64,000 nucleotides of DNA from Tabrizicola sp. (GTDB lineage Bacteria; Pseudomonadota; Alphaproteobacteria; Rhodobacterales; Rhodobacteraceae). The stretch covers positions 227,533 through 291,532 of the forward strand of contig NZ_JAEULO010000068.1 in the NCBI RefSeq assembly GCF_016793705.1, given 5' to 3'. A program made the translations under genes and the position numbers. The notes beneath the pieces were generated by a model that ran no database searches, was not told the origin of the DNA, and saw only the letters and a list, made by a program, of their open reading frames with translations. Below are positions 51,305-64,000 of this stretch, piece by piece (the first letter of the stretch is position 1; each line of letters opens with the position of its first letter).

Positions 51305-51380
51305 GGGGCAGTAGCTCAGTTGGGAGAGCGTATCGTTCGCAATGATAAGGTCAGGGGTTCGATCCCCCTCTGCTCCACCA
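51305..51380 (+). tRNA. tRNA-Ala (CGC)
   Basis: 76-nt cloverleaf with encoded CCA. Acceptor GGGGCAG/CTGCTCC, D arm GCTC/GAGC, anticodon stem TATCG/TGATA (one G-T), loop TTCGCAA with anticodon CGC (51338-51340), T stem AGGGG/CCCCT. It reads GCG alanine codons. It marks the end of the core region; tRNA 3' ends are common integration sites. Confidence 0.93.
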
Positions 51381-54656: not shown

Positions 54657-55292
54657 TCAGGCCGCCGGGGGAAAGTTGTGCGTCGCGCCGTCTACCTTGA
54701 TAGTCAGGACGGTGGCGAGGTTGACCGACCGGGGGGCTTTCGCTTGGGTATCCCAGACCGGCAGGAGGTTCGGATGGCGCTGGGCGCGGGCTTCAGCCGC
54801 CTTGCGCCCTGCCTCGCTGGCGGCCTCGCCCTTGACGTGGAACTTGAGGGCGGCGGGCTGCACCCGCATGACGCGGCGGGTTCCGTCGGTCTTGATGAAA
54901 GTGACGACGCAGAAGCGACCTTGTGCGGAGGCGATCAGCGCCCGCTTGGCGGCGAAGTCCTCGGCCACCGCGTCGGCTTCCCGCGCTACAGCCTCGCCTA
55001 GCGCACGGCGCGCGGCGGCGAGACGCTCGATACCGTCGAAGCCCAGCCGGTCGGTGTTTTCCATGTTTTCGATTTCCGCGCGGATCGAGGAGGCGGTGCG
55101 CCCGGCGAATTCAGCTACCCGTTCCGCAGCCCGGCGGGCGGTCTCGACAGCGCGGCGGGCCGCTTCCTTCGCATTCCACCAGACCAGCTTGAGGGCGCGC
55201 GACAGGCGCTGGCCCCAAGTCTCGCGGTTGCCCGCGAAGCGGCGGGCGATGGTCCAGGCTTCCGTCATGATCTGGGCGCGGTCGAAGGTCAT
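54657..55292 (-). CDS. coiled-coil protein with C-terminal WYL_2 (SH3-like) domain
   Basis: 211 aa. Residues about 30-125 are Ala/Arg/Glu-rich helix (AARRAVETARRAAERVAEF ...), likely a coiled coil. The C-terminal part (CVVTFIKTDGTRRVMRV, NLLPVWDTQAKAPRSVNLATVLTIKVDG) matches the WYL_2/DUF2693 beta-barrel found in phage and plasmid proteins. First gene of a four-gene operon whose promoter carries repressor-type palindromes shared with the divergent XRE gene. Confidence 0.75.
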   Translation of the reverse strand: MTFDRAQIMTEAWTIARRFAGNRETWGQRLSRALKLVWWNAKEAARRAVETARRAAERVAEFAGRTASSIRAEIENMENTDRLGFDGIERLAAARRALGEAVAREADAVAEDFAAKRALIASAQGRFCVVTFIKTDGTRRVMRVQPAALKFHVKGEAASEAGRKAAEARAQRHPNLLPVWDTQAKAPRSVNLATVLTIKVDGATHNFPPAA

Positions 55293-55390: not shown

Positions 55391-55627
55391 ATGACCGCAG
55401 ATCAGTTCAGAATGGCGAAAGCGGCGCTGGGCATCGCCAATCCAGAGCTTGCCGAAGCGACCGGCCTGCACCGGAACACGCTCAACAAACTCGACAAGGG
55501 CGAAGGGAAGGCGTCTACGGTCCAGCTCGTGCGGCTGACGCTAGAGGCCCGGGGGATCCAGTTCCTGGAAGGTGGCCAAGTGGCGGCGGGACCGGGTGTT
55601 GCAGTGAAAGGGGCGGTCGATGGATGA
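55391..55627 (+). CDS. XRE family transcriptional regulator (repressor-like)
   Basis: 78-aa HTH protein: MTADQFRMAKAALGIANPEL, AEATGLHRNTLNKLDKGEGK and STVQLVRLTLEARGIQFLEGG follow the XRE helix order with recognition helix LHRNTLNKLDKG. ATG 55391 matches family starts; an in-frame start at 55361 lies inside an operator. Likely binds the palindromes upstream and represses the divergent promoter. Confidence 0.85.
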   Translation: MTADQFRMAKAALGIANPELAEATGLHRNTLNKLDKGEGKASTVQLVRLTLEARGIQFLEGGQVAAGPGVAVKGAVDG

Positions 55628-56248: not shown

Positions 56249-57730
56249 TTAACCCGGTCGGCCATGAATGCCAAAGGCTTCAAGCACCTCAGATGGGGTC
56301 CGAATGGAGCTGCGCTGACGCCGGTCGGCTGGCGCAAGACCGCCGCCGTAGCTGCGCCAGTCATTGCCATGGACGGCAGCCCATATCGCTTCCAGCCTTG
56401 GCCGTTGCAGCCGTGCCTCCGCCTGGTAGGCCTCGGACAATGGGGAAAACCTGGTCCTGATCTGATCCTCTCTGAACTGCTCCGCCAGATGGCCATAGGT
56501 CGCCGCGACAGAGCGGGTGTCTGCGTGACCAAGTTGGCGGGCCACAAGGCTCAAGGGCACTCCGTTCCGCACCAGGTCGCTGGCGTATGTGTGGCGAAGT
56601 CCATGGAACACGAATTCCGGGGGAAGCCCGGCTTGGCTGACCGCACGCCGGAACAGGTTCGCGTGCTGCCGATTCCAGACCTTCCCCTTGTCGGATAGCA
56701 GGACGCGGTCGCCCTGTTCCTTGCCCTCGCAGAGCGAAAGAAAGAACGCCATCGCCTCATCAGGCAGGAACACAAAGCGGGCAGGCGCGAGTTTGAACGC
56801 GGACACATGCAGCCCAAAGACCTCTCTACCCACATCACCGACCCTGAGTTGCCCCAACTCGCCAACGCGGCATCCGGTATAGAGTCCCGCTAGCACCAGG
56901 TTCGCGAGCGCTGGCGTACAGTTGCTCAACAGCCTGTGGCATTCGTCGCGGTCTAGGAACAACGTCCTGGCCGCCGGAGGAACCGCAATCCGATGCAGAC
57001 ACCTCAGGGGGCGATCCGACGAAATTCTTCCGCTATCCCAGGCATGCCGAAACGCCATCCGCAGTACGGTGATGACGCTATTGAAGGCCCGCTTCGCGCG
57101 CCTGACCAGATCGGCAGAAGGATCAACGTTGGAAGTCCCAGCTCTGGCCCGCGTGGCGTGCGTGGCAAGAACACGTTGCGCAATGTCGCGCAGGTGGCGG
57201 GCGTTGAACTCTTCCAGGGCCTCGCTCAGTATCGGCCCCGACAGGTGAAAATTGATCAGCACGATATTGTTGTAGTGTCCGCCGGGGGAGCGGGCGATGC
57301 GCGACCATTCAAGGTAGTCGGCAAGTGCCGAACCGACCGTGTAGACCGACCCATAGGGGCAGAAATTGAGACCTTCCGCCTTTCCTATCGGCCTCGCGCT
57401 TTTCGCGACTGCGCGGACAGGTTCGCTCTCGAACCATGCGATGGCGAGACGAAGTGCGCTTTCGTAGCTGATGGCTTCCGGGTCGCATTCGCGTGCCGAG
57501 GCCAGCCTGCGCTGAACGTAGCGGCCTCCAACGGTCATGAAGCGCGCTGTCCAGGTGCAGATTCTGGCGTTTGGGACGTAGACACCGATTTGCCTGCACC
57601 TTGCCACCGAATGCCAATAGGGCGGCTCGCGCGGCCTCAGTTCGCGGCGTTGCTCAACCTTTGAAAAGGGGCATACGGGGGCTGACGCCCAGCCCATTGG
57701 CGCAAGCCGATCACATTCCGGGGCCTTCAT
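56249..57730 (-). CDS. int: tyrosine recombinase/integrase
   Basis: 493-aa site-specific recombinase. The catalytic set is complete: R288 (GLYTGCRVGELGQL), K313, H376-x-x-R379 (FHGLRHTYAS), H402 (QLGHADTRSV) and nucleophile Y412 (ATYGHL). A SAM-like core-binding domain precedes and about 80 residues follow the tyrosine. ATG 57730 follows a strong GGAGGA. It would integrate or excise the accessory region; a palindromic GGTTAAC pair (56236-56253) overlaps its stop codon. Confidence 0.93.
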   Translation of the reverse strand: MKAPECDRLAPMGWASAPVCPFSKVEQRRELRPREPPYWHSVARCRQIGVYVPNARICTWTARFMTVGGRYVQRRLASARECDPEAISYESALRLAIAWFESEPVRAVAKSARPIGKAEGLNFCPYGSVYTVGSALADYLEWSRIARSPGGHYNNIVLINFHLSGPILSEALEEFNARHLRDIAQRVLATHATRARAGTSNVDPSADLVRRAKRAFNSVITVLRMAFRHAWDSGRISSDRPLRCLHRIAVPPAARTLFLDRDECHRLLSNCTPALANLVLAGLYTGCRVGELGQLRVGDVGREVFGLHVSAFKLAPARFVFLPDEAMAFFLSLCEGKEQGDRVLLSDKGKVWNRQHANLFRRAVSQAGLPPEFVFHGLRHTYASDLVRNGVPLSLVARQLGHADTRSVAATYGHLAEQFREDQIRTRFSPLSEAYQAEARLQRPRLEAIWAAVHGNDWRSYGGGLAPADRRQRSSIRTPSEVLEAFGIHGRPG

Positions 57731-57908
57731 TGTCGCTTCCTCCATGTCCGTGACCGATGGTGTGTAGCAGCGCATGGACCGTCCGAAGAACGCAACGACC
57801 GAGCGCTCTGGCGCGAGGGGATTAATCATTGCGGCGGCAACGGCCCGATTGCGGCCTATGTTCTGACAAGCTCGCACGGGAAGCTTGCCATTCAACCTGG
57901 AGGATACC

Positions 57909-58061
57909 ATGCGAATCTTTGTCACAATCGCTTTTGCGACCGCCATTTCTGCTCTGTCTCCCCTGCCTGCAGATGCTCATGGCGGCGGGTGCCGCAAGAA
58001 CTCCCCGCCCGGTCAGTGCTGCCACATGGACAACAGCACCGGGTACGTGCACTGCCACTGA
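57909..58061 (+). CDS. 50-aa secreted Cys/His-rich protein
   Basis: A gene too short for most tracks: signal peptide MRIFVTIAFATAISALSPLP then HGGGCRKNSPPGQCCHMDNS and GYVHCH. The end, HGGGC...CH...YVHCH, matches the small 'YHCH'/excalibur-like secreted proteins common in alphaproteobacteria and phages. GGAGGATACC precedes ATG 57909. It is divergent from the integrase and ends with a hairpin at 58121. Function unknown; metal or nucleic-acid binding is a guess. Confidence 0.7.
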   Translation: MRIFVTIAFATAISALSPLPADAHGGGCRKNSPPGQCCHMDNSTGYVHCH

Positions 58062-58776: not shown

Positions 58777-59400
58777 ATGTGCAACCTCTACAACCAGACC
58801 ACTGCCGCCGAGGCCATGCGCCAGCTTTTCGCCGACATGGACAATCAGGCGGGCAACGTCGAAACAGGCGACGTCTACCCTGACCGCATGGCGCCTATCA
58901 TCACGGCAGAGGGTGGCGGTCATGCCCTGCGCAGCGCCAGATGGGGCCTGCCGTCGCCACCGCAGTTCCACAGCCCGTCTGGCATAGACCGGGGCGTGAC
59001 CAACGTCCGCAACACCGGCTCGCCCCACTGGCGGCGCTGGTTGGGGCCGGATCACCGCTGCCTGGTCCCTGTGACCAAATTCGCCGAACCGCGCCCCGGT
59101 GGCAGAGGATCGGGCAACGCCTGGTTCCGGTCGCGCGAGGAACGCCCGATGTTCTTCGCCGGGATCTGGGTGCCGGACTGGACCTCGATCCGCAAGCTGA
59201 AGGATGGCCAGACGACCGATGACCTCTATGCGTTCCTGACCTGCCCACCGAATGCCGAGGTGGGGGCGATCCACCCCAAGGCGATGCCGGTCATTCTAAC
59301 CGAGGCGGATGAGTGGTCAGAGTGGCTGACTGCACCTTGGGCCGAGGCGGTGAAGCTGCAGCGACCGCTGCCGGACGGGGCGCTGGAGGTGGGTGATTAG
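58777..59400 (+). CDS. SRAP (HMCES/YedK-like) abasic-site protein
   Basis: 207 aa. Catalytic Cys2 follows Met (MCNLYNQTTAAEAMRQLF), as needed for the thiazolidine link to abasic sites; conserved Asn in VTNVRNTGSPHWRRWL and the His of AIHPKAMPVIL are present. The usual GFYEW Glu is replaced by TKFAEP, with the Glu kept. SRAP proteins shield abasic sites in single-stranded DNA, which suits a replicating or damaged mobile element. Co-transcribed with the zinc-ribbon gene under LexA. Confidence 0.88.
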   Translation: MCNLYNQTTAAEAMRQLFADMDNQAGNVETGDVYPDRMAPIITAEGGGHALRSARWGLPSPPQFHSPSGIDRGVTNVRNTGSPHWRRWLGPDHRCLVPVTKFAEPRPGGRGSGNAWFRSREERPMFFAGIWVPDWTSIRKLKDGQTTDDLYAFLTCPPNAEVGAIHPKAMPVILTEADEWSEWLTAPWAEAVKLQRPLPDGALEVGD

Positions 59401-60300: not shown

Positions 60301-60646
60301 GCCTGCGTCCTCCCCGGGTGTGTGCTGCGTATTGTCTGGCATGCGGGGTTAGCCACCGTCGTTTCCTTTCCAGGGTGTTGGATAGCTGGGCAGCGCCGCG
60401 AGAGTATCGCGGGCCAAGGTGCGGGCGGCATTTGGCGAAAGGGGGCGGCTATATGTCCCGCATTTCCAGCATCTCCACAAAACCCCCACCCCCGGTTTTG
60501 CCTGCTCTCGGAGCGAACGAAGGGGGGCGCGGGTAGCCAAGAGACCGGCCCTCCAGACTTTTGCCCACCCCCAATGTTCGGCGTCTTGTCGATCCGCAGA
60601 GGTGCCATGCAGCACCGCCGAGGCGGTGGGTATGGTAATTAAGGAT
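60301..60646. other. gene-free gap in the accessory region
   Basis: I see no credible gene here. It holds small inverted repeats, CAAAACC/GGTTTTG (60478-60500) and CACCGCC/GGCGGTG around 60613-60628 (the latter downstream of the initiator-like gene on the minus strand and a possible weak terminator), and the promoter for the pair below must lie in it. Confidence 0.45.
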
Positions 60647-60788
60647 GTCCTCATTTTAGGGACAGGGACGGTGCAGAAACTGCTCATTTCGTCCCTCTTT
60701 TTGGGACAGGCTGTCCTCTTTTTGGGGACAGGGTTTGCCGAAACGTCCCTATTTCGATGACAGGGTTGTCCTCATTTTGGTGACAGGG
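60647..60788. repeat. five 21-nt iteron-like repeats
   Basis: Units at 60647-60667, 60691-60711, 60713-60733, 60745-60765 and 60768-60788. Each begins GTCC, has a T-rich middle and ends GGACAGG or TGACAGG, an imperfect inverted repeat. Spacings of 44, 22, 32 and 23 are near multiples of the DNA turn. Unit 1 is outside the gene at 60684; units 2-5 are inside and are read in three different frames. An origin/iteron or initiator-binding array is the best reading. Confidence 0.75.
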
Positions 60789-61238
60789 TTTTGTTTTTCC
60801 GTTCCTGCCGGTCGGGTTGTTGGTCAGCGTCTTGATGACCGGGAAATCGCCGCCCTCGCGCCAGCTCTGGTAAAGCTTCCGGCCTGAGGGCTGGTTCGGC
60901 AACTCGATCTCGGTCAACTCATAGGCTGGGGATTTGGCCTCGCCAGTGAAGCCAAGGCTCGCCGCTTCTTTGACGACCAGGAAGCCCTTCTTCTGCAGGG
61001 CTATGAACGCCTGTGCCGCCGCGTTCTTGCTGCACCCCATCCGATCTGCCGCCTGCCTGACAGACAGCCTGAGCGTGCCGTTGTTGTTGGCCTTCGGTCC
61101 GTGCCATTCCAGCTTCAGCCACGGGTAGAGGGCTTGCGCAGTTGGCCCAAGCGCCCGCCAAGCATCGGTCTGCATAAGGTTGCGGACCATGACTGTGAAG
61201 TGTTCGGCCCGCCTTTCGTTTCTCTTGTCGCGCCCCAT
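60684..61238 (-). CDS. replication-initiator-like winged-helix protein
   Basis: 184 aa. N-terminal half: basic start RNERRAEHFTVMVRNLMQTD, then WRALGPTAQALYPWLKLEWH and a winged helix (RLSVRQAADRMGCSKNAAAQ AFIALQKKGFLVVKE), the look of phage/plasmid replication and helix-turn-helix proteins. The C-terminus is low complexity and formed by the iteron repeats (CHQNEDNP, PVIEIGT, TLSPKRGQ, PVPKRGTK). Its ATG overlaps the PC4 gene stop (TGATG). Initiator role is inferred from fold and repeats. Confidence 0.65.
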   Translation of the reverse strand: MGRDKRNERRAEHFTVMVRNLMQTDAWRALGPTAQALYPWLKLEWHGPKANNNGTLRLSVRQAADRMGCSKNAAAQAFIALQKKGFLVVKEAASLGFTGEAKSPAYELTEIELPNQPSGRKLYQSWREGGDFPVIKTLTNNPTGRNGKTKPCHQNEDNPVIEIGTFRQTLSPKRGQPVPKRGTK

Positions 61239-61453
61239 CAGTCGCCTCCGCCGTCGCTAGGGGCCACGATGGAGCAAATGGCCTTCGCGACTTCCAATGC
61301 ACGATCCGGGCGCAACGCGATGCCCTGCTTGCCGGGTCGCATTTCGCCGTCTTGGGCGAGATACCAGGTGCGGATGTTCAGCAGGGGTGTGCCTCGGAAG
61401 TCGTCAAGTGACACTCTGACTTCCTCGCTGCGGTTCTTCTGGATGACTATCAT
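61238..61453 (-). CDS. PC4-like single-stranded-DNA-binding protein
   Basis: 71 aa with the PC4 transcription coactivator/ssDNA-binding fold: EEVRVSLDDFRGTPLLNIRT WYLAQ, then RPGKQGIALRPDRALEVAKAI (quoted in parts). Bacterial and phage PC4 proteins bind ssDNA during replication or recombination. ATG 61453 follows GGAGGGCAG; the stop of the 33-aa micro-gene overlaps it, and its own stop overlaps the initiator-like ATG. Confidence 0.78.
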   Translation of the reverse strand: MIVIQKNRSEEVRVSLDDFRGTPLLNIRTWYLAQDGEMRPGKQGIALRPDRALEVAKAICSIVAPSDGGGD

Positions 61454-61551
61454 TCTCTGCCCTCCCCATAGGCGAGGTGAGCGAGGGCGGCTGCCACAGG
61501 GCCAGAAAAGCCCCACAGGCGACGAAGGCGCAGGAGACGAAGGGCGGTCAT
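61450..61551 (-). CDS. 33-aa micro-protein, translationally coupled on both sides
   Basis: MTALRLLRLRRLWGFSGPVA then AALAHLAYGEGRE: a short basic, amphipathic or weakly hydrophobic peptide. It is too short for ordinary gene calling, but its ATG overlaps the upstream stop (ATGA, 61551/61548) and its TGA overlaps the PC4 start (ATGA, 61453/61450), so it fills the only gap in the six-gene chain. Function unknown. Confidence 0.6.
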   Translation of the reverse strand: MTALRLLRLRRLWGFSGPVAAALAHLAYGEGRE

Positions 61552-61865
61552 GCGGTGCCCTCCATGCCCTGACAGGCGCGGAAGGTGTCAAGGCGGCCCT
61601 TCCCGAAGCGAACCGCCTCAACTGTCTCGGGGCCACACCCCAGCACGTCCGCCGCGTCGGCAGCAGCGTCACCCGTCCGAGTCGCATAGTCGCTGATGTT
61701 GTCCAGGATGACCGCCAGGTCAGCAGGGCCGCTGTTCAGGCCCTTTGTCGCCGCCTCTCGCGTCAGCGCGGCCAAAATGGCGATGTAACCCAGAAGACGG
61801 GCTTGCGGCGGCAGAGCCGTTTCGTCTGCGAGATGCGCAACGGGCTGTTGATCCGCGTCGGTCAT
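61548..61865 (-). CDS. hypothetical island protein
   Basis: 105-aa acidic helical protein (PPQARLLGYIAILAALTREA ATKGL, then DAADVLGCGPETVEAVRFGK). Its ATG overlaps the topoisomerase-like gene stop and its stop overlaps the micro-gene start. No motif recognised. Confidence 0.65.
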   Translation of the reverse strand: MTDADQQPVAHLADETALPPQARLLGYIAILAALTREAATKGLNSGPADLAVILDNISDYATRTGDAAADAADVLGCGPETVEAVRFGKGRLDTFRACQGMEGTA

Positions 61866-62758
61866 GCCGCCACCCCCAGCCGGTCGAGGAGCAACAGGCG
61901 TGCTTCAGCTTCGCGGGCCAACACATCCACCCGTACCGTCGCAATCTGCCTGGCCTCCACCGCATCCCGCACGATCTGCGACAGCAAATCCGGTGGAATG
62001 GCCTCTGCCTGAACGGTCTCGCCCTGAAAGGCTCGATTGTCGGTCGGTTTGGGCGGGGCAGTTGGCAGGCCCAGCGCCTCTGCCTGTGCCCGTGTCACGG
62101 CAAGGCGGGTGAAGTTCGGGAAAGGCCCGCCAAGGCTCTGCACCATCGCCGAGACGTCTTCCGCAAGCGCGCTGAACAGGTGGACGCCGCTAGGGTCATG
62201 GTCGCCGACATGCAGGATTTCGACGCCCTCGCTGAATCCTTGGGCATCGGCGATTTCGCGGGCAAGCTCGTGCTTCGCAGTCAGGCTGTCGAAGCCACCG
62301 GACGATAGGACAGGGATGCCGTAGTCGGCGACCGCAGAGGCCAGCATCGGGGCCATGCCCGAGGCTTCGCAAAGCAGCCAGAGACGCGTTGGCTGGCCCT
62401 CCTGCCGGTCAAGCCTGAAGTTCCGCGCGGCCCTGGCGACGCCTTGCAACCATTCCTGCGGCCCTGACCACACATCGCCGCCGTGCCGTGTCCCGCCATC
62501 GTCCCGGATCGCGTCAAAGGCGATGAACCCGGCGCGGCGGGCGCGGCCCAGCGTCTCGCAGAGCCGGGAATAGGCCTGTTCCGTCTTGTCGTAGCCATGC
62601 ACCCCAACAAGGCGATAGAAGACCTGCCGAATGGTGAGCGGCAGGTGCTCCTGATACTCGTCCAGCACACCGCGCACCTGCGCCAAAAGGGCCAGAGTGT
62701 CGGGCCGGGGGTTCCATGGCGCGAAGCCGCGCGGGCGGGTTTTCGGGCGCGCTTTCAT
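61862..62758 (-). CDS. Spo11/topoisomerase VI subunit A-like protein (mini-A type)
   Basis: 298 aa. Residues about 35-80 form the winged helix with the candidate nucleophile Tyr48 in LTIRQVFYRLVG; the Toprim domain follows with E131 (LLCEASG) and the DxD D186/D188 (HVGDHDPSG). These are the key residues of TopoVIA and Spo11, enzymes that break DNA via a 5'-phosphotyrosine. No B-subunit (GHKL ATPase) gene is in the window, as in the 'mini-A' families of mobile elements. It could nick or break element DNA in replication. Coupled on both sides by ATGA overlaps. Confidence 0.8.
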   Translation of the reverse strand: MKARPKTRPRGFAPWNPRPDTLALLAQVRGVLDEYQEHLPLTIRQVFYRLVGVHGYDKTEQAYSRLCETLGRARRAGFIAFDAIRDDGGTRHGGDVWSGPQEWLQGVARAARNFRLDRQEGQPTRLWLLCEASGMAPMLASAVADYGIPVLSSGGFDSLTAKHELAREIADAQGFSEGVEILHVGDHDPSGVHLFSALAEDVSAMVQSLGGPFPNFTRLAVTRAQAEALGLPTAPPKPTDNRAFQGETVQAEAIPPDLLSQIVRDAVEARQIATVRVDVLAREAEARLLLLDRLGVAA

Positions 62759-63075
62759 GCGGCCACCGGCTGGGTGGCCTTGCGAGCCACCTTCGATCTG
62801 AGGAAATAGCGCCCGTGGCGGCCCGGGAAATCGCCCCCGTGCGGCTCGTCTTCGCGGATGATGGTCAGCCCGTGCTCGTGCCGCAGATCGAAGACATAGG
62901 CATGCAGCCGAGGCCCGTTCATTTCGATAGCGGTAAGGCCGCGCGGGCCTGCCAGGATCAGCATTTCCAGCGCCCAGCGGTCGCGGCCCATCAAGACAAT
63001 TTCCCGCGTTTCTTTATCGGAGTCTTGGACCGTGTAGACCGCTCGGCCCCAGCGTTTCTGTTTCTCTTGGGTCAT
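62755..63075 (-). CDS. winged-helix phage-type protein
   Basis: 106 aa. MTQEKQKRWGRAVYTVQDSD then RDRWALEMLILAGPRGLTAI EMNGPRLHAYVFDLRHEHGL TIIREDEP: a helix-turn-helix/winged-helix unit often seen in prophages. ATG 63075 begins this conserved part; the open frame extends upstream as a less likely coding run. First gene of the coupled chain down to the initiator-like gene. Confidence 0.7.
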   Translation of the reverse strand: MTQEKQKRWGRAVYTVQDSDKETREIVLMGRDRWALEMLILAGPRGLTAIEMNGPRLHAYVFDLRHEHGLTIIREDEPHGGDFPGRHGRYFLRSKVARKATQPVAA

Positions 63076-63468: not shown

Positions 63469-63888
63469 CTATTTCTGTTCTCGCTCTTTCGCTTCCTTAA
63501 GGTCAGCGAAGGCGCGTTTCAGTGACATCAAGCTGAAATCGTCGTCTAGAATGTCCAGCATCTCGCGGTGGACCTGCTTCCAAGACTTCGTCCGCTCGCT
63601 GCTACCGTAGTGTCGGAGGGCGGCTTCTGCAATTCTTTCACGTTTTTCCTTGGTTCTTCCCGGCCCTTTGGCCCGCTTCTGATGCTCGGTCTCTCTCTCG
63701 GGTGTAGCAGAATCGTCGATCCCATGAAGTGCATCGAGGTACGTCCTGAGGTCCTTCTCCAGAGACTCGAACTCGAGGATTTTCATGCAGAGTGCGCGGC
63801 CACGAAAACGGGCTGCCATCCAGTAGGCGTCGAGCCAATCGCTCAGCCTAAACCTGGCTGCTAGGGTCAGGACCCATTGATCTTCCAC
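63469..63888 (-). CDS. hypothetical protein, possibly cut at its 5' end by an IS
   Basis: 139 aa from GTG 63888 (VEDQWVLTLAARFRLSDWLD at the start, EIDDSATPERETEHQKRAKG P-type basic middle, and LKRAFADLKEAKEREQK at the end). The frame stays open to an in-frame TGA at about 63903, right where the IS begins, and no Shine-Dalgarno precedes the GTG. The true N-terminus may have been removed by the insertion. Internal ATG 63786 is another possible start. Function unknown. Confidence 0.5.
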   Translation of the reverse strand: MEDQWVLTLAARFRLSDWLDAYWMAARFRGRALCMKILEFESLEKDLRTYLDALHGIDDSATPERETEHQKRAKGPGRTKEKRERIAEAALRHYGSSERTKSWKQVHREMLDILDDDFSLMSLKRAFADLKEAKEREQK

Positions 63889-63889
63889 T

Positions 63890-64000
63890 TTCGGCGTGAT
63901 TCAGGCTCTGCGAGGAGACTGACCGATGAGCAACCTTTTCTGGCTGACCGAAGCGCAGATGGCGCGGCTGCAACCCTTCTTTCCCAAGAGCCATGGCAAG
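63890..64000 (+). mobile_element. IS5-type insertion sequence, left end (partial)
   Basis: The transposase start at 63926 is preceded by a short leader with GATTCAGGCTCTGCGAGGAG, which should hold the left inverted repeat; the exact tip and target duplication cannot be set because the right end is outside the window. Confidence 0.6.
63926..64000 (+). CDS. IS5 family transposase, N-terminal fragment (truncated by window end)
   Basis: The 25 visible residues, MSNLFWLTEAQMARLQPFFP then KSHGK, are the well-known start of IS5-type (IS427-like) transposases. AGGAG stands before ATG 63926. The rest lies outside the window. Confidence 0.85.
   Translation, partial: MSNLFWLTEAQMARLQPFFPKSHGK

What the first reader, a model, noticed from the sequence alone, without database searches (positions are those of the whole stretch)
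60684..63075. Six-gene coupled chain with a Spo11/TopoVIA-like protein but no B subunit
Winged-helix protein, mini-A-like topoisomerase (Tyr48, E131, D186/D188), unknown protein, 33-aa micro-protein, PC4 ssDNA-binder and initiator-like protein are linked by 4-, 4-, 4-, 4- and 1-nt overlaps. Such tight order suggests one machine. A TopoVIA-like nuclease making tyrosyl-linked breaks plus an ssDNA-binder and an iteron-bearing initiator would be an uncommon replication or transfer start system.
Basis: partly seen in the sequence, partly recalled or inferred. Interest (0 to 1): 0.82.

Follow-up and report, generated by a model that had tools for sequence, protein, structure and literature searches.

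The report
Mini-A topoisomerase in a satellite-like replicon
A small mobile DNA element in an alphaproteobacterium carries, in one tightly packed gene block, a known but unstudied virus-borne relative of the meiotic DNA-breaking enzyme Spo11 next to a phage-like replication origin; related elements suggest that the enzyme is an optional add-on to the replication module rather than the part that starts replication.

Summary
The six minus-strand genes are real (overlaps 4, 4, 4, 4, 1 nt). The 298-aa protein is a Mini-A: it matches phage NP1's protein, the Mini-A example of a review, and its model has a winged helix with Tyr48 and a TopoVIA/JetD-like Toprim domain. R44 and Y48 are present in 81 of 81 aligned relatives. 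The Topo VI B marker domain was found in none of 16 genomes (host plus 15 with Mini-A). The operon belongs to an element of about 14 kb in tRNA-Ala; its integrase probably lies on another contig beyond an IS. The initiator gene carries a lambda-O-like origin: five 19-bp palindromes with the same spacing (22/23, 32/33, 22, 44 bp) in 9 of 11 initiators, though their sequence changes. Yet 5 of 8 genomes with a close initiator show no Mini-A, and the nearest Mini-A relatives sit beside a Toprim primase (with DUF3987 in four). Initiators joined Mini-A from three Mini-A clades. So Mini-A is an exchangeable accessory of satellite-like replication modules, not the starter; most likely a B-less type IIB cleavage enzyme acting on topology or recombination of the replicating element (activity inferred). 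The 33-aa protein is a conserved microprotein, usually behind HTH_91.

The parts
62755..63075 (-). HTH_91 winged-helix protein, 106 aa (P0001)
   Evidence: Pfam PF22324 E 3e-29; relatives behind AlpA in several elements
61862..62758 (-). Mini-A (type IIB topoisomerase A-like), 298 aa (P0002); Tyr48, Arg44, Glu131, Asp186, Asp188
61548..61865 (-). orphan protein, 105 aa (P0003)
   Evidence: no family hit; no relative among 15,962 ORFs of the collected loci
61450..61551 (-). 33-aa microprotein (P0004)
   Evidence: relatives in L008, L009, L010, L051, L054, L064; codon-position differences 8/3/17 in L009 against L054
61238..61453 (-). PC4-type (ssDNA-binding) protein, 71 aa (P0005)
   Evidence: Pfam PF02229 E 2.8e-15; relatives in L015, L051, L062
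60684..61238 (-). O-like replication initiator, 184 aa (P0006)
   Evidence: weak PHROG hits; relatives in 34 of 295 genomes; iteron array at its 3' end
60646..60785 (-). putative origin: five 19-bp palindromic iterons at 60767-60785, 60744-60762, 60712-60730, 60690-60708, 60646-60664, straddling the initiator stop codon
63182..63367 (-). AlpA-type excisionase/regulator, 61 aa
   Evidence: Pfam PF05930 E 5.4e-6
63862..64000 (+). one end of an IS copy that runs past the contig end
   Evidence: sequence identical to C68 and C9 up to about here; other IS end on C68, C48 and C18
51305..51380 (+). tRNA-Ala(cgc), attachment site; its last 14 nt recur on contig C18 next to an integrase gene
   Evidence: same tRNA occupied in L008
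59463..60342 (-). two downstream genes (102 and 204 aa) also paired in L064
54657..55627 (.). two distal genes (54657-55292 minus; 55391-55627 plus, HTH) whose relatives follow the replication genes in L009 and L062

Best explanation
This is the early/replication operon of a satellite-like integrative element in a tRNA-Ala gene. The O-like initiator binds, presumably as dimers, five helically phased palindromic iterons at the 3' end of its own gene and starts theta replication; PC4 probably protects or channels the opened single strands; AlpA and HTH_91 act in excision and regulation. Mini-A is an exchangeable accessory, not the starter: as a homodimer without a B (ATPase) partner it would make Tyr48-linked staggered breaks in bent or crossed DNA and reseal or release them, helping topology, decatenation or recombination of the replicating element. 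Shown: family, conserved catalytic residues, missing B-domain marker, origin architecture, optional and repeated association. Inferred: catalytic activity, ATP independence, target, exact step, dimer, and the far side of the element on C18.
For: Homology to a named Mini-A; R44 and Y48 81/81, E131 80/81, acidic residue at 252 81/81, with R-x3-Y spacing as R102/Y106 of M. mazei Top6A; model and Toprim match; TopoVIA is the best PDB profile match (E 0.13 and 0.028); no Topo-VIb_trans in 16 of 16 genomes, control positive in 4 of 14; iteron array; Mini-A directly upstream of an initiator in L051 and L052, from other Mini-A clades; Mini-A with primase and DUF3987-cluster genes in L008-L011, with the primase in L015 and L054; in phage PaMx25 Mini-A is next to Sak4 and one gene from a ligase, with Cas4 and helicase genes nearby.
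Against: No activity shown. The DxD part of the 81/81 counts is by construction, since the scan pattern held it. A protein with an intact site could still act against other DNA. Similarity to TopoVIA by sequence is marginal; Foldseek gave no PDB match at E<=0.001. The winged-helix domain alone did not list TopoVIA. Other GHKL ATPase families were not searched. Helper phage, excision and replication are untested.
Confidence: 0.6

Rival explanations
1. Mini-A is part of the replication start itself: it breaks DNA at or near the iteron array and the initiator and PC4 build a fork on the break.
For: Translational coupling with initiator and PC4; directly upstream of an initiator in L051 and L052.
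Against: Same initiator family and same iteron spacing in L020 and L060-L064, where no Mini-A ORF was found in the stretch held; 5 of 8 genomes with a close initiator show no Mini-A; Mini-A also sits beside a different primase module.
Confidence: 0.1
2. Mini-A is a Spo11-like programmed break-maker: once theta copies exist it makes double-strand breaks that switch the element to recombination-dependent, concatemer-forming replication suited to phage packaging.
For: No B domain found; neighbours in phage PaMx25 include an annealing protein and a Cas4 exonuclease; seven Mini-A loci have HNH, TerL and capsid genes within 5 kb.
Against: No direct evidence; no annealing protein or exonuclease family was found among the 20 window proteins scanned.
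Confidence: 0.15
3. Mini-A is a weapon: a JetD-like nuclease that cuts competing plasmids, helper phage or host DNA.
Against: No other PADLOC hit among the eight window proteins given, so no JetABC motor there; in phages and elements it lies among replication and recombination genes.
Confidence: 0.1
4. Mini-A is only a structural or regulatory DNA-binding protein and does not cut.
For: No assay; the function of Mini-A is given as unknown in a review (PMC8084294 passage).
Against: Tyr48 and Arg44 kept in 81 of 81, Glu131 in 80 of 81 relatives.
Confidence: 0.05

Closest known systems
Mini-A subfamily of type IIB topoisomerases (Takahashi et al. 2020, paper not held, recalled; passages of PMC7614492, PMC8084294, PMC8185306, PMC11302465)
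   Same: tblastn match over 84% of the query to phage NP1's protein, the example named in PMC7614492 Fig. 4 legend; size, Toprim, catalytic Tyr, carried by mobile elements, no B subunit found.
   Different: Sits in a satellite-like integrative element, coupled to PC4, a microprotein and an O-like initiator; no listed paper pointed to such a setting.
Topo VI A subunit / Spo11
   Same: Winged helix with R-x3-Y and Toprim E...DxD; Toprim part aligns with 1d3y and 9o0g.
   Different: No B subunit found; shorter; sequence match marginal.
Lambda O / ori-lambda
   Same: Iterons are 19-bp imperfect palindromes at the initiator gene (passages of PMC5043065, PMC7466680).
   Different: Five sites straddling the stop codon with 22/32/22/44 spacing, against four inside the gene in lambda; protein similarity weak.
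PICMI and PICI satellites (passages of PMC10803314, PMC6092414)
   Same: Small element with integrase, a gene overlapping the integrase, AlpA, replication gene and origin; L008-L011 have integrase, AlpA and a DUF3987-cluster gene (Pfam-tested in L008).
   Different: No DUF3987 gene found in the window element; sits in tRNA-Ala, not by fis; no helper or induction known.
JetD / MksG nuclease (Wadjet)
   Same: Related Toprim part.
   Different: No JetABC hit; smaller protein.

Membership tests
Mini-A | homology to a named Mini-A (phage NP1) | tested here: met
   tblastn 29.3%, 84% of query, E 3e-22; NP1 named as Mini-A in PMC7614492
Mini-A | winged helix with catalytic Tyr plus Toprim E/DxD | tested here: met
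Mini-A | no B subunit gene | tested here: met
   PF09239 found in 0 of 16 genomes; other GHKL families not searched
Mini-A | DNA cleavage or relaxation activity | not testable with these tools
   no assay
Topo VI / Topo VIII | B (GHKL-transducer) part, separate or fused | tested here: not met
   298-aa protein without it; no Topo-VIb_trans in the genome, which is 94.5% complete
Lambda-O-type initiator replicon | palindromic iterons at the initiator gene | tested here: met
Lambda-O-type initiator replicon | initiator protein homologous to O | tested here: inconclusive
   phrog_345 E 0.0048, phrog_186 E 5e-4
PICMI satellite | integrase and AlpA together | tested here: inconclusive
   AlpA in the window; integrase on C18 behind a copy of the same IS end, the link across the IS being inferred
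PICMI satellite | DUF3987/DUF5906 primase | tested here: not met
   no DUF3987 hit in the 20 window proteins scanned with Pfam nor in the window's ORFs with a home-made profile, which missed L010
PICMI satellite | helper-phage-dependent spread | not testable with these tools
   -
JetD/Wadjet nuclease | operon with JetABC motor | tested here: inconclusive
   only a weak JetD hit of Mini-A itself; the other seven window proteins given to PADLOC had none

The most novel reading that the evidence does not exclude
Bacterial satellites use a B-less, Spo11-like enzyme to make programmed double-strand breaks in their own replicating DNA, turning initiator-driven theta copies into recombination-driven concatemers; it would be a prokaryotic parallel of meiotic break formation, with PC4 and the 33-aa protein as helpers.
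Probability: 0.13. Interest if true: 0.85.

Novelty: new variant of a known kind. Interest (0 to 1): 0.5.

Why it matters
The role of Mini-A is given as unknown in a review. These elements put it in a small, swappable setting: the same kind of initiator and origin exists naturally with and without Mini-A, so its contribution can be tested by simple gene removal. A TopoVIA relative that works without the ATPase subunit would also bear on how the cleavage subunit is controlled, a question shared with Spo11. The five-iteron origin, constant in spacing but not in sequence, is a clean case of initiator-origin coevolution.

Full report
OBSERVATION. On the minus strand the genes run HTH_91 62755-63075, Mini-A 61862-62758, orphan 61548-61865, 33-aa 61450-61551, PC4 61238-61453, initiator 60684-61238, with overlaps of 4, 4, 4, 4 and 1 nt. 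Pfam names HTH_91 and PC4; PHROGs calls the Mini-A 'DNA topoisomerase' (phrog_6247, E 1.9e-34); the initiator has only weak hits to O-like and DnaD-like proteins; the 105-aa and 33-aa proteins have no convincing hit. NCBIfam found nothing for the six; PADLOC only a weak JetD hit of Mini-A (E 0.0066).

MINI-A. P0002 matches 67 phage records and 47 plasmid records, each below 60% identity; of the 30 plasmid rows shown the best are actinobacterial (Rubrobacter 52.7%, Streptomyces up to 50.4%). Phage NP1, one of the matches (29.3%, E 3e-22), is named as the Mini-A example in a review (PMC7614492, passages). At E<=1e-8, 6 of 196 genomes of the order and 14 of 394 of the family match, the host counted in both. 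In alignment A1 (26 rows) E131, D186 and D188 are invariant and Y48 is present in the 25 rows that cover it. One search found 308 viral relatives and kept 80; A2 holds the window and 80 of 85 sequences (5 duplicates dropped; L151 had no ORF hit). In A2 R44 and Y48 are 81/81 and E131 80/81; D186/D188 were part of the scan pattern, so their 81/81 is not independent. R44-Y48 has the same spacing as R102-Y106 of M. mazei Top6A, and E131/D186/D188 correspond to E202/D254/D256 (PMC13040014, passages); E252 as the match of E342 is my inference.

NO B SUBUNIT. Topo-VIb_trans (PF09239) was found in 0 of 16 genomes (the host and 15 with Mini-A), while the control rings in 4 archaea among 14 genomes. Other GHKL families were not searched.

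THE ELEMENT. tRNA-Ala(cgc) at 51305-51380 stands beside a thioredoxin gene and, further out, gcvP; in Paracoccus alkenifer (L008) a related element sits at the same tRNA beside the same two genes, with a 14-nt repeat of the tRNA end at 2521, giving about 7.6 kb. The window's contig ends in an IS that starts at about 63862. The far end of this IS occurs on contigs C68, C48 and C18; C18 carries next to it a tyrosine integrase 67.7% identical to that of L009 and a copy of the last 14 nt of the tRNA (12 found by search, 14 read off the printed sequences). I take C18 as the missing side; without the IS the element is then about 14.4 kb. This placement is inferred, not assembled. The integrase at 56249-57946 is unrelated to these. 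None of 20 window proteins scanned gave a relaxase or conjugation family; ORFs outside these 20 were not scanned.

CONTEXT IN RELATIVES. Gene calls and clusters for 27 sources come from a home-made caller, so small genes are uncertain. Common order: AlpA, HTH_91, microprotein, then Mini-A with (a) a DUF7146/Toprim primase and a DUF3987-cluster gene in L008, L009, L010 (L053 is the same contig) and L011, and the primase in L015 and L054 (Pfam names tested on L008); in L008 the Mini-A follows these genes; or (b) an initiator in window, L051 and L052. L051 holds an HTH_91-like gene (Pfam E 0.05, below cut-off), a 38-aa microprotein, PC4, Mini-A and initiator with 4, 4, 4, 1-nt overlaps. L052 lacks HTH_91, PC4 and microprotein hits. 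Without a Mini-A ORF in the stretch held: L062 (AlpA, HTH_91, PC4, unknown, initiator), L064 (AlpA, HTH_91, microprotein, unknown, initiator), L060, L061, L063, L020. Of the 8 genomes with an initiator match above 150 bits, 3 (host, G236, G238) have Mini-A next to it; G117, G156, G157, G256 and G298 show none or 33 (which of these searches held them I infer from the handle numbers). A tree of 100 Mini-A rows puts the window in a 17-row clade (98/99) with the primase-type elements, L051 in a 12-row clade (99/97) with five TerL/HNH/capsid-bearing viral contigs among others, and L052 in a 9-row clade (100/99); some long branches are unsure and the root is only the midpoint. On the simplest reading initiators have met Mini-A at least three times.

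ORIGIN. A five-site array (7-5-7 palindromes, spacing 22-32-22-44, +/-1) scored 58/70 in the window; in 9 of 11 initiators none of 150 random spacings and none of 20 shuffles reached the observed score (window, L020, L051, L052, L060, L061, L062, L063, L064; L063 is the weakest with 50/70); it failed in L091 and L102. The spacing was chosen after looking at the repeats of these same sequences, so this is a description with a control, not an independent test. Sequences differ between elements (TGTCC...GGACA, CGTCACC...GGTGACG, TGTCCTA...TAGGACA). The spacings are near 2, 3, 2 and 4 helical turns. Lambda iterons are 19-bp inverted repeats that bind O dimers, with the origin inside the O gene (PMC5043065, PMC7466680, passages).

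MICROPROTEIN. Relatives lie in L008, L009, L010, L051, L054 and L064 (circular profile, but the sequences share an ending of the kind G(L/M)xxxxAxx(I/L)AxLx(W/Y/F)G, my reading). L009 against L054 differ at codon positions 8/3/17, as a coding gene would. It follows the HTH_91 gene directly in L008, L010, L051, L054 and L064, and occurs without Mini-A in L064, so its partner is more likely HTH_91 than Mini-A.

MECHANISM AND VERDICT. The initiator and its origin exist without Mini-A, and Mini-A exists with another replication set. Mini-A is therefore best read as an exchangeable accessory of early replication modules. Precedent for ATP-independent action exists in Topo VIII: M. marina relaxation and A. 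degensii cleavage (PMC7614492 passage). Phage PaMx25 has Mini-A next to Sak4 and one gene from a ligase, with ThyX, Cas4 and helicase nearby. Whether it relaxes, decatenates or breaks DNA is open. The satellite label rests on gene content only (PICMI: integrase, overlapping gene, AlpA, primase; PMC10803314 passages); no helper is known.

NOVELTY. Mini-A itself is known. Searches for Mini-A or Topo VI with mobile elements, satellites, AlpA or Rhodobacteraceae and for phased iterons with satellites listed no title or abstract start that describes Mini-A in such replicons or this origin; I read passages only, most subscription papers are not held, and the founding Mini-A paper is not held.

Noticed in passing
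window 60646-60785 and initiator genes of L020, L051, L052, L060-L064: Five palindromic iterons with the same 22/23-32/33-22-44 bp spacing but changing sequence: spacing conserved, half-sites drift.
   Followed up: yes
window 56249-57946 and 58777-59400: A second tyrosine integrase without blastp match to the integrases of L008, L009 and C18, near an SRAP gene (Pfam E 8.4e-22); perhaps a nested element or cargo.
   Followed up: partly
window 63469-63861 and L165 112-627: An ORF overlapping the integrase by 1 nt on C18 runs into the IS end, as does one in the window: possibly one gene split by the IS, recalling the integrase-overlapping gene of PICMIs. The pieces matched neither L009 nor L064.
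   Followed up: partly
L011 7129-7992 and 8870-9751: Two copies of the primase-cluster gene flank Mini-A.
   Followed up: no
L085, L087, L096, L100, L104, L105, L059: Mini-A with HNH, TerL and HK97-type capsid genes within 5 kb; the six viral contigs are 5-14 kb long: possible capsid-forming satellites.
   Followed up: partly
L071 (Paenibacillus durus 15,151-bp plasmid): Mini-A on a tiny plasmid with a gene annotated as Zot-domain protein; may be a virus genome.
   Followed up: no
L068, L069, L070 (plasmids), L012 (genome contig): Mini-A 46-52% identical to the window's in Streptomyces and Rubrobacter, closer than the phage versions aligned (24-27%).
   Followed up: no
L099 10357-11274 and 7 other loci: A gene cluster whose tested member is DUF5131 recurs within 5 kb of Mini-A in 8 loci.
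   Followed up: no
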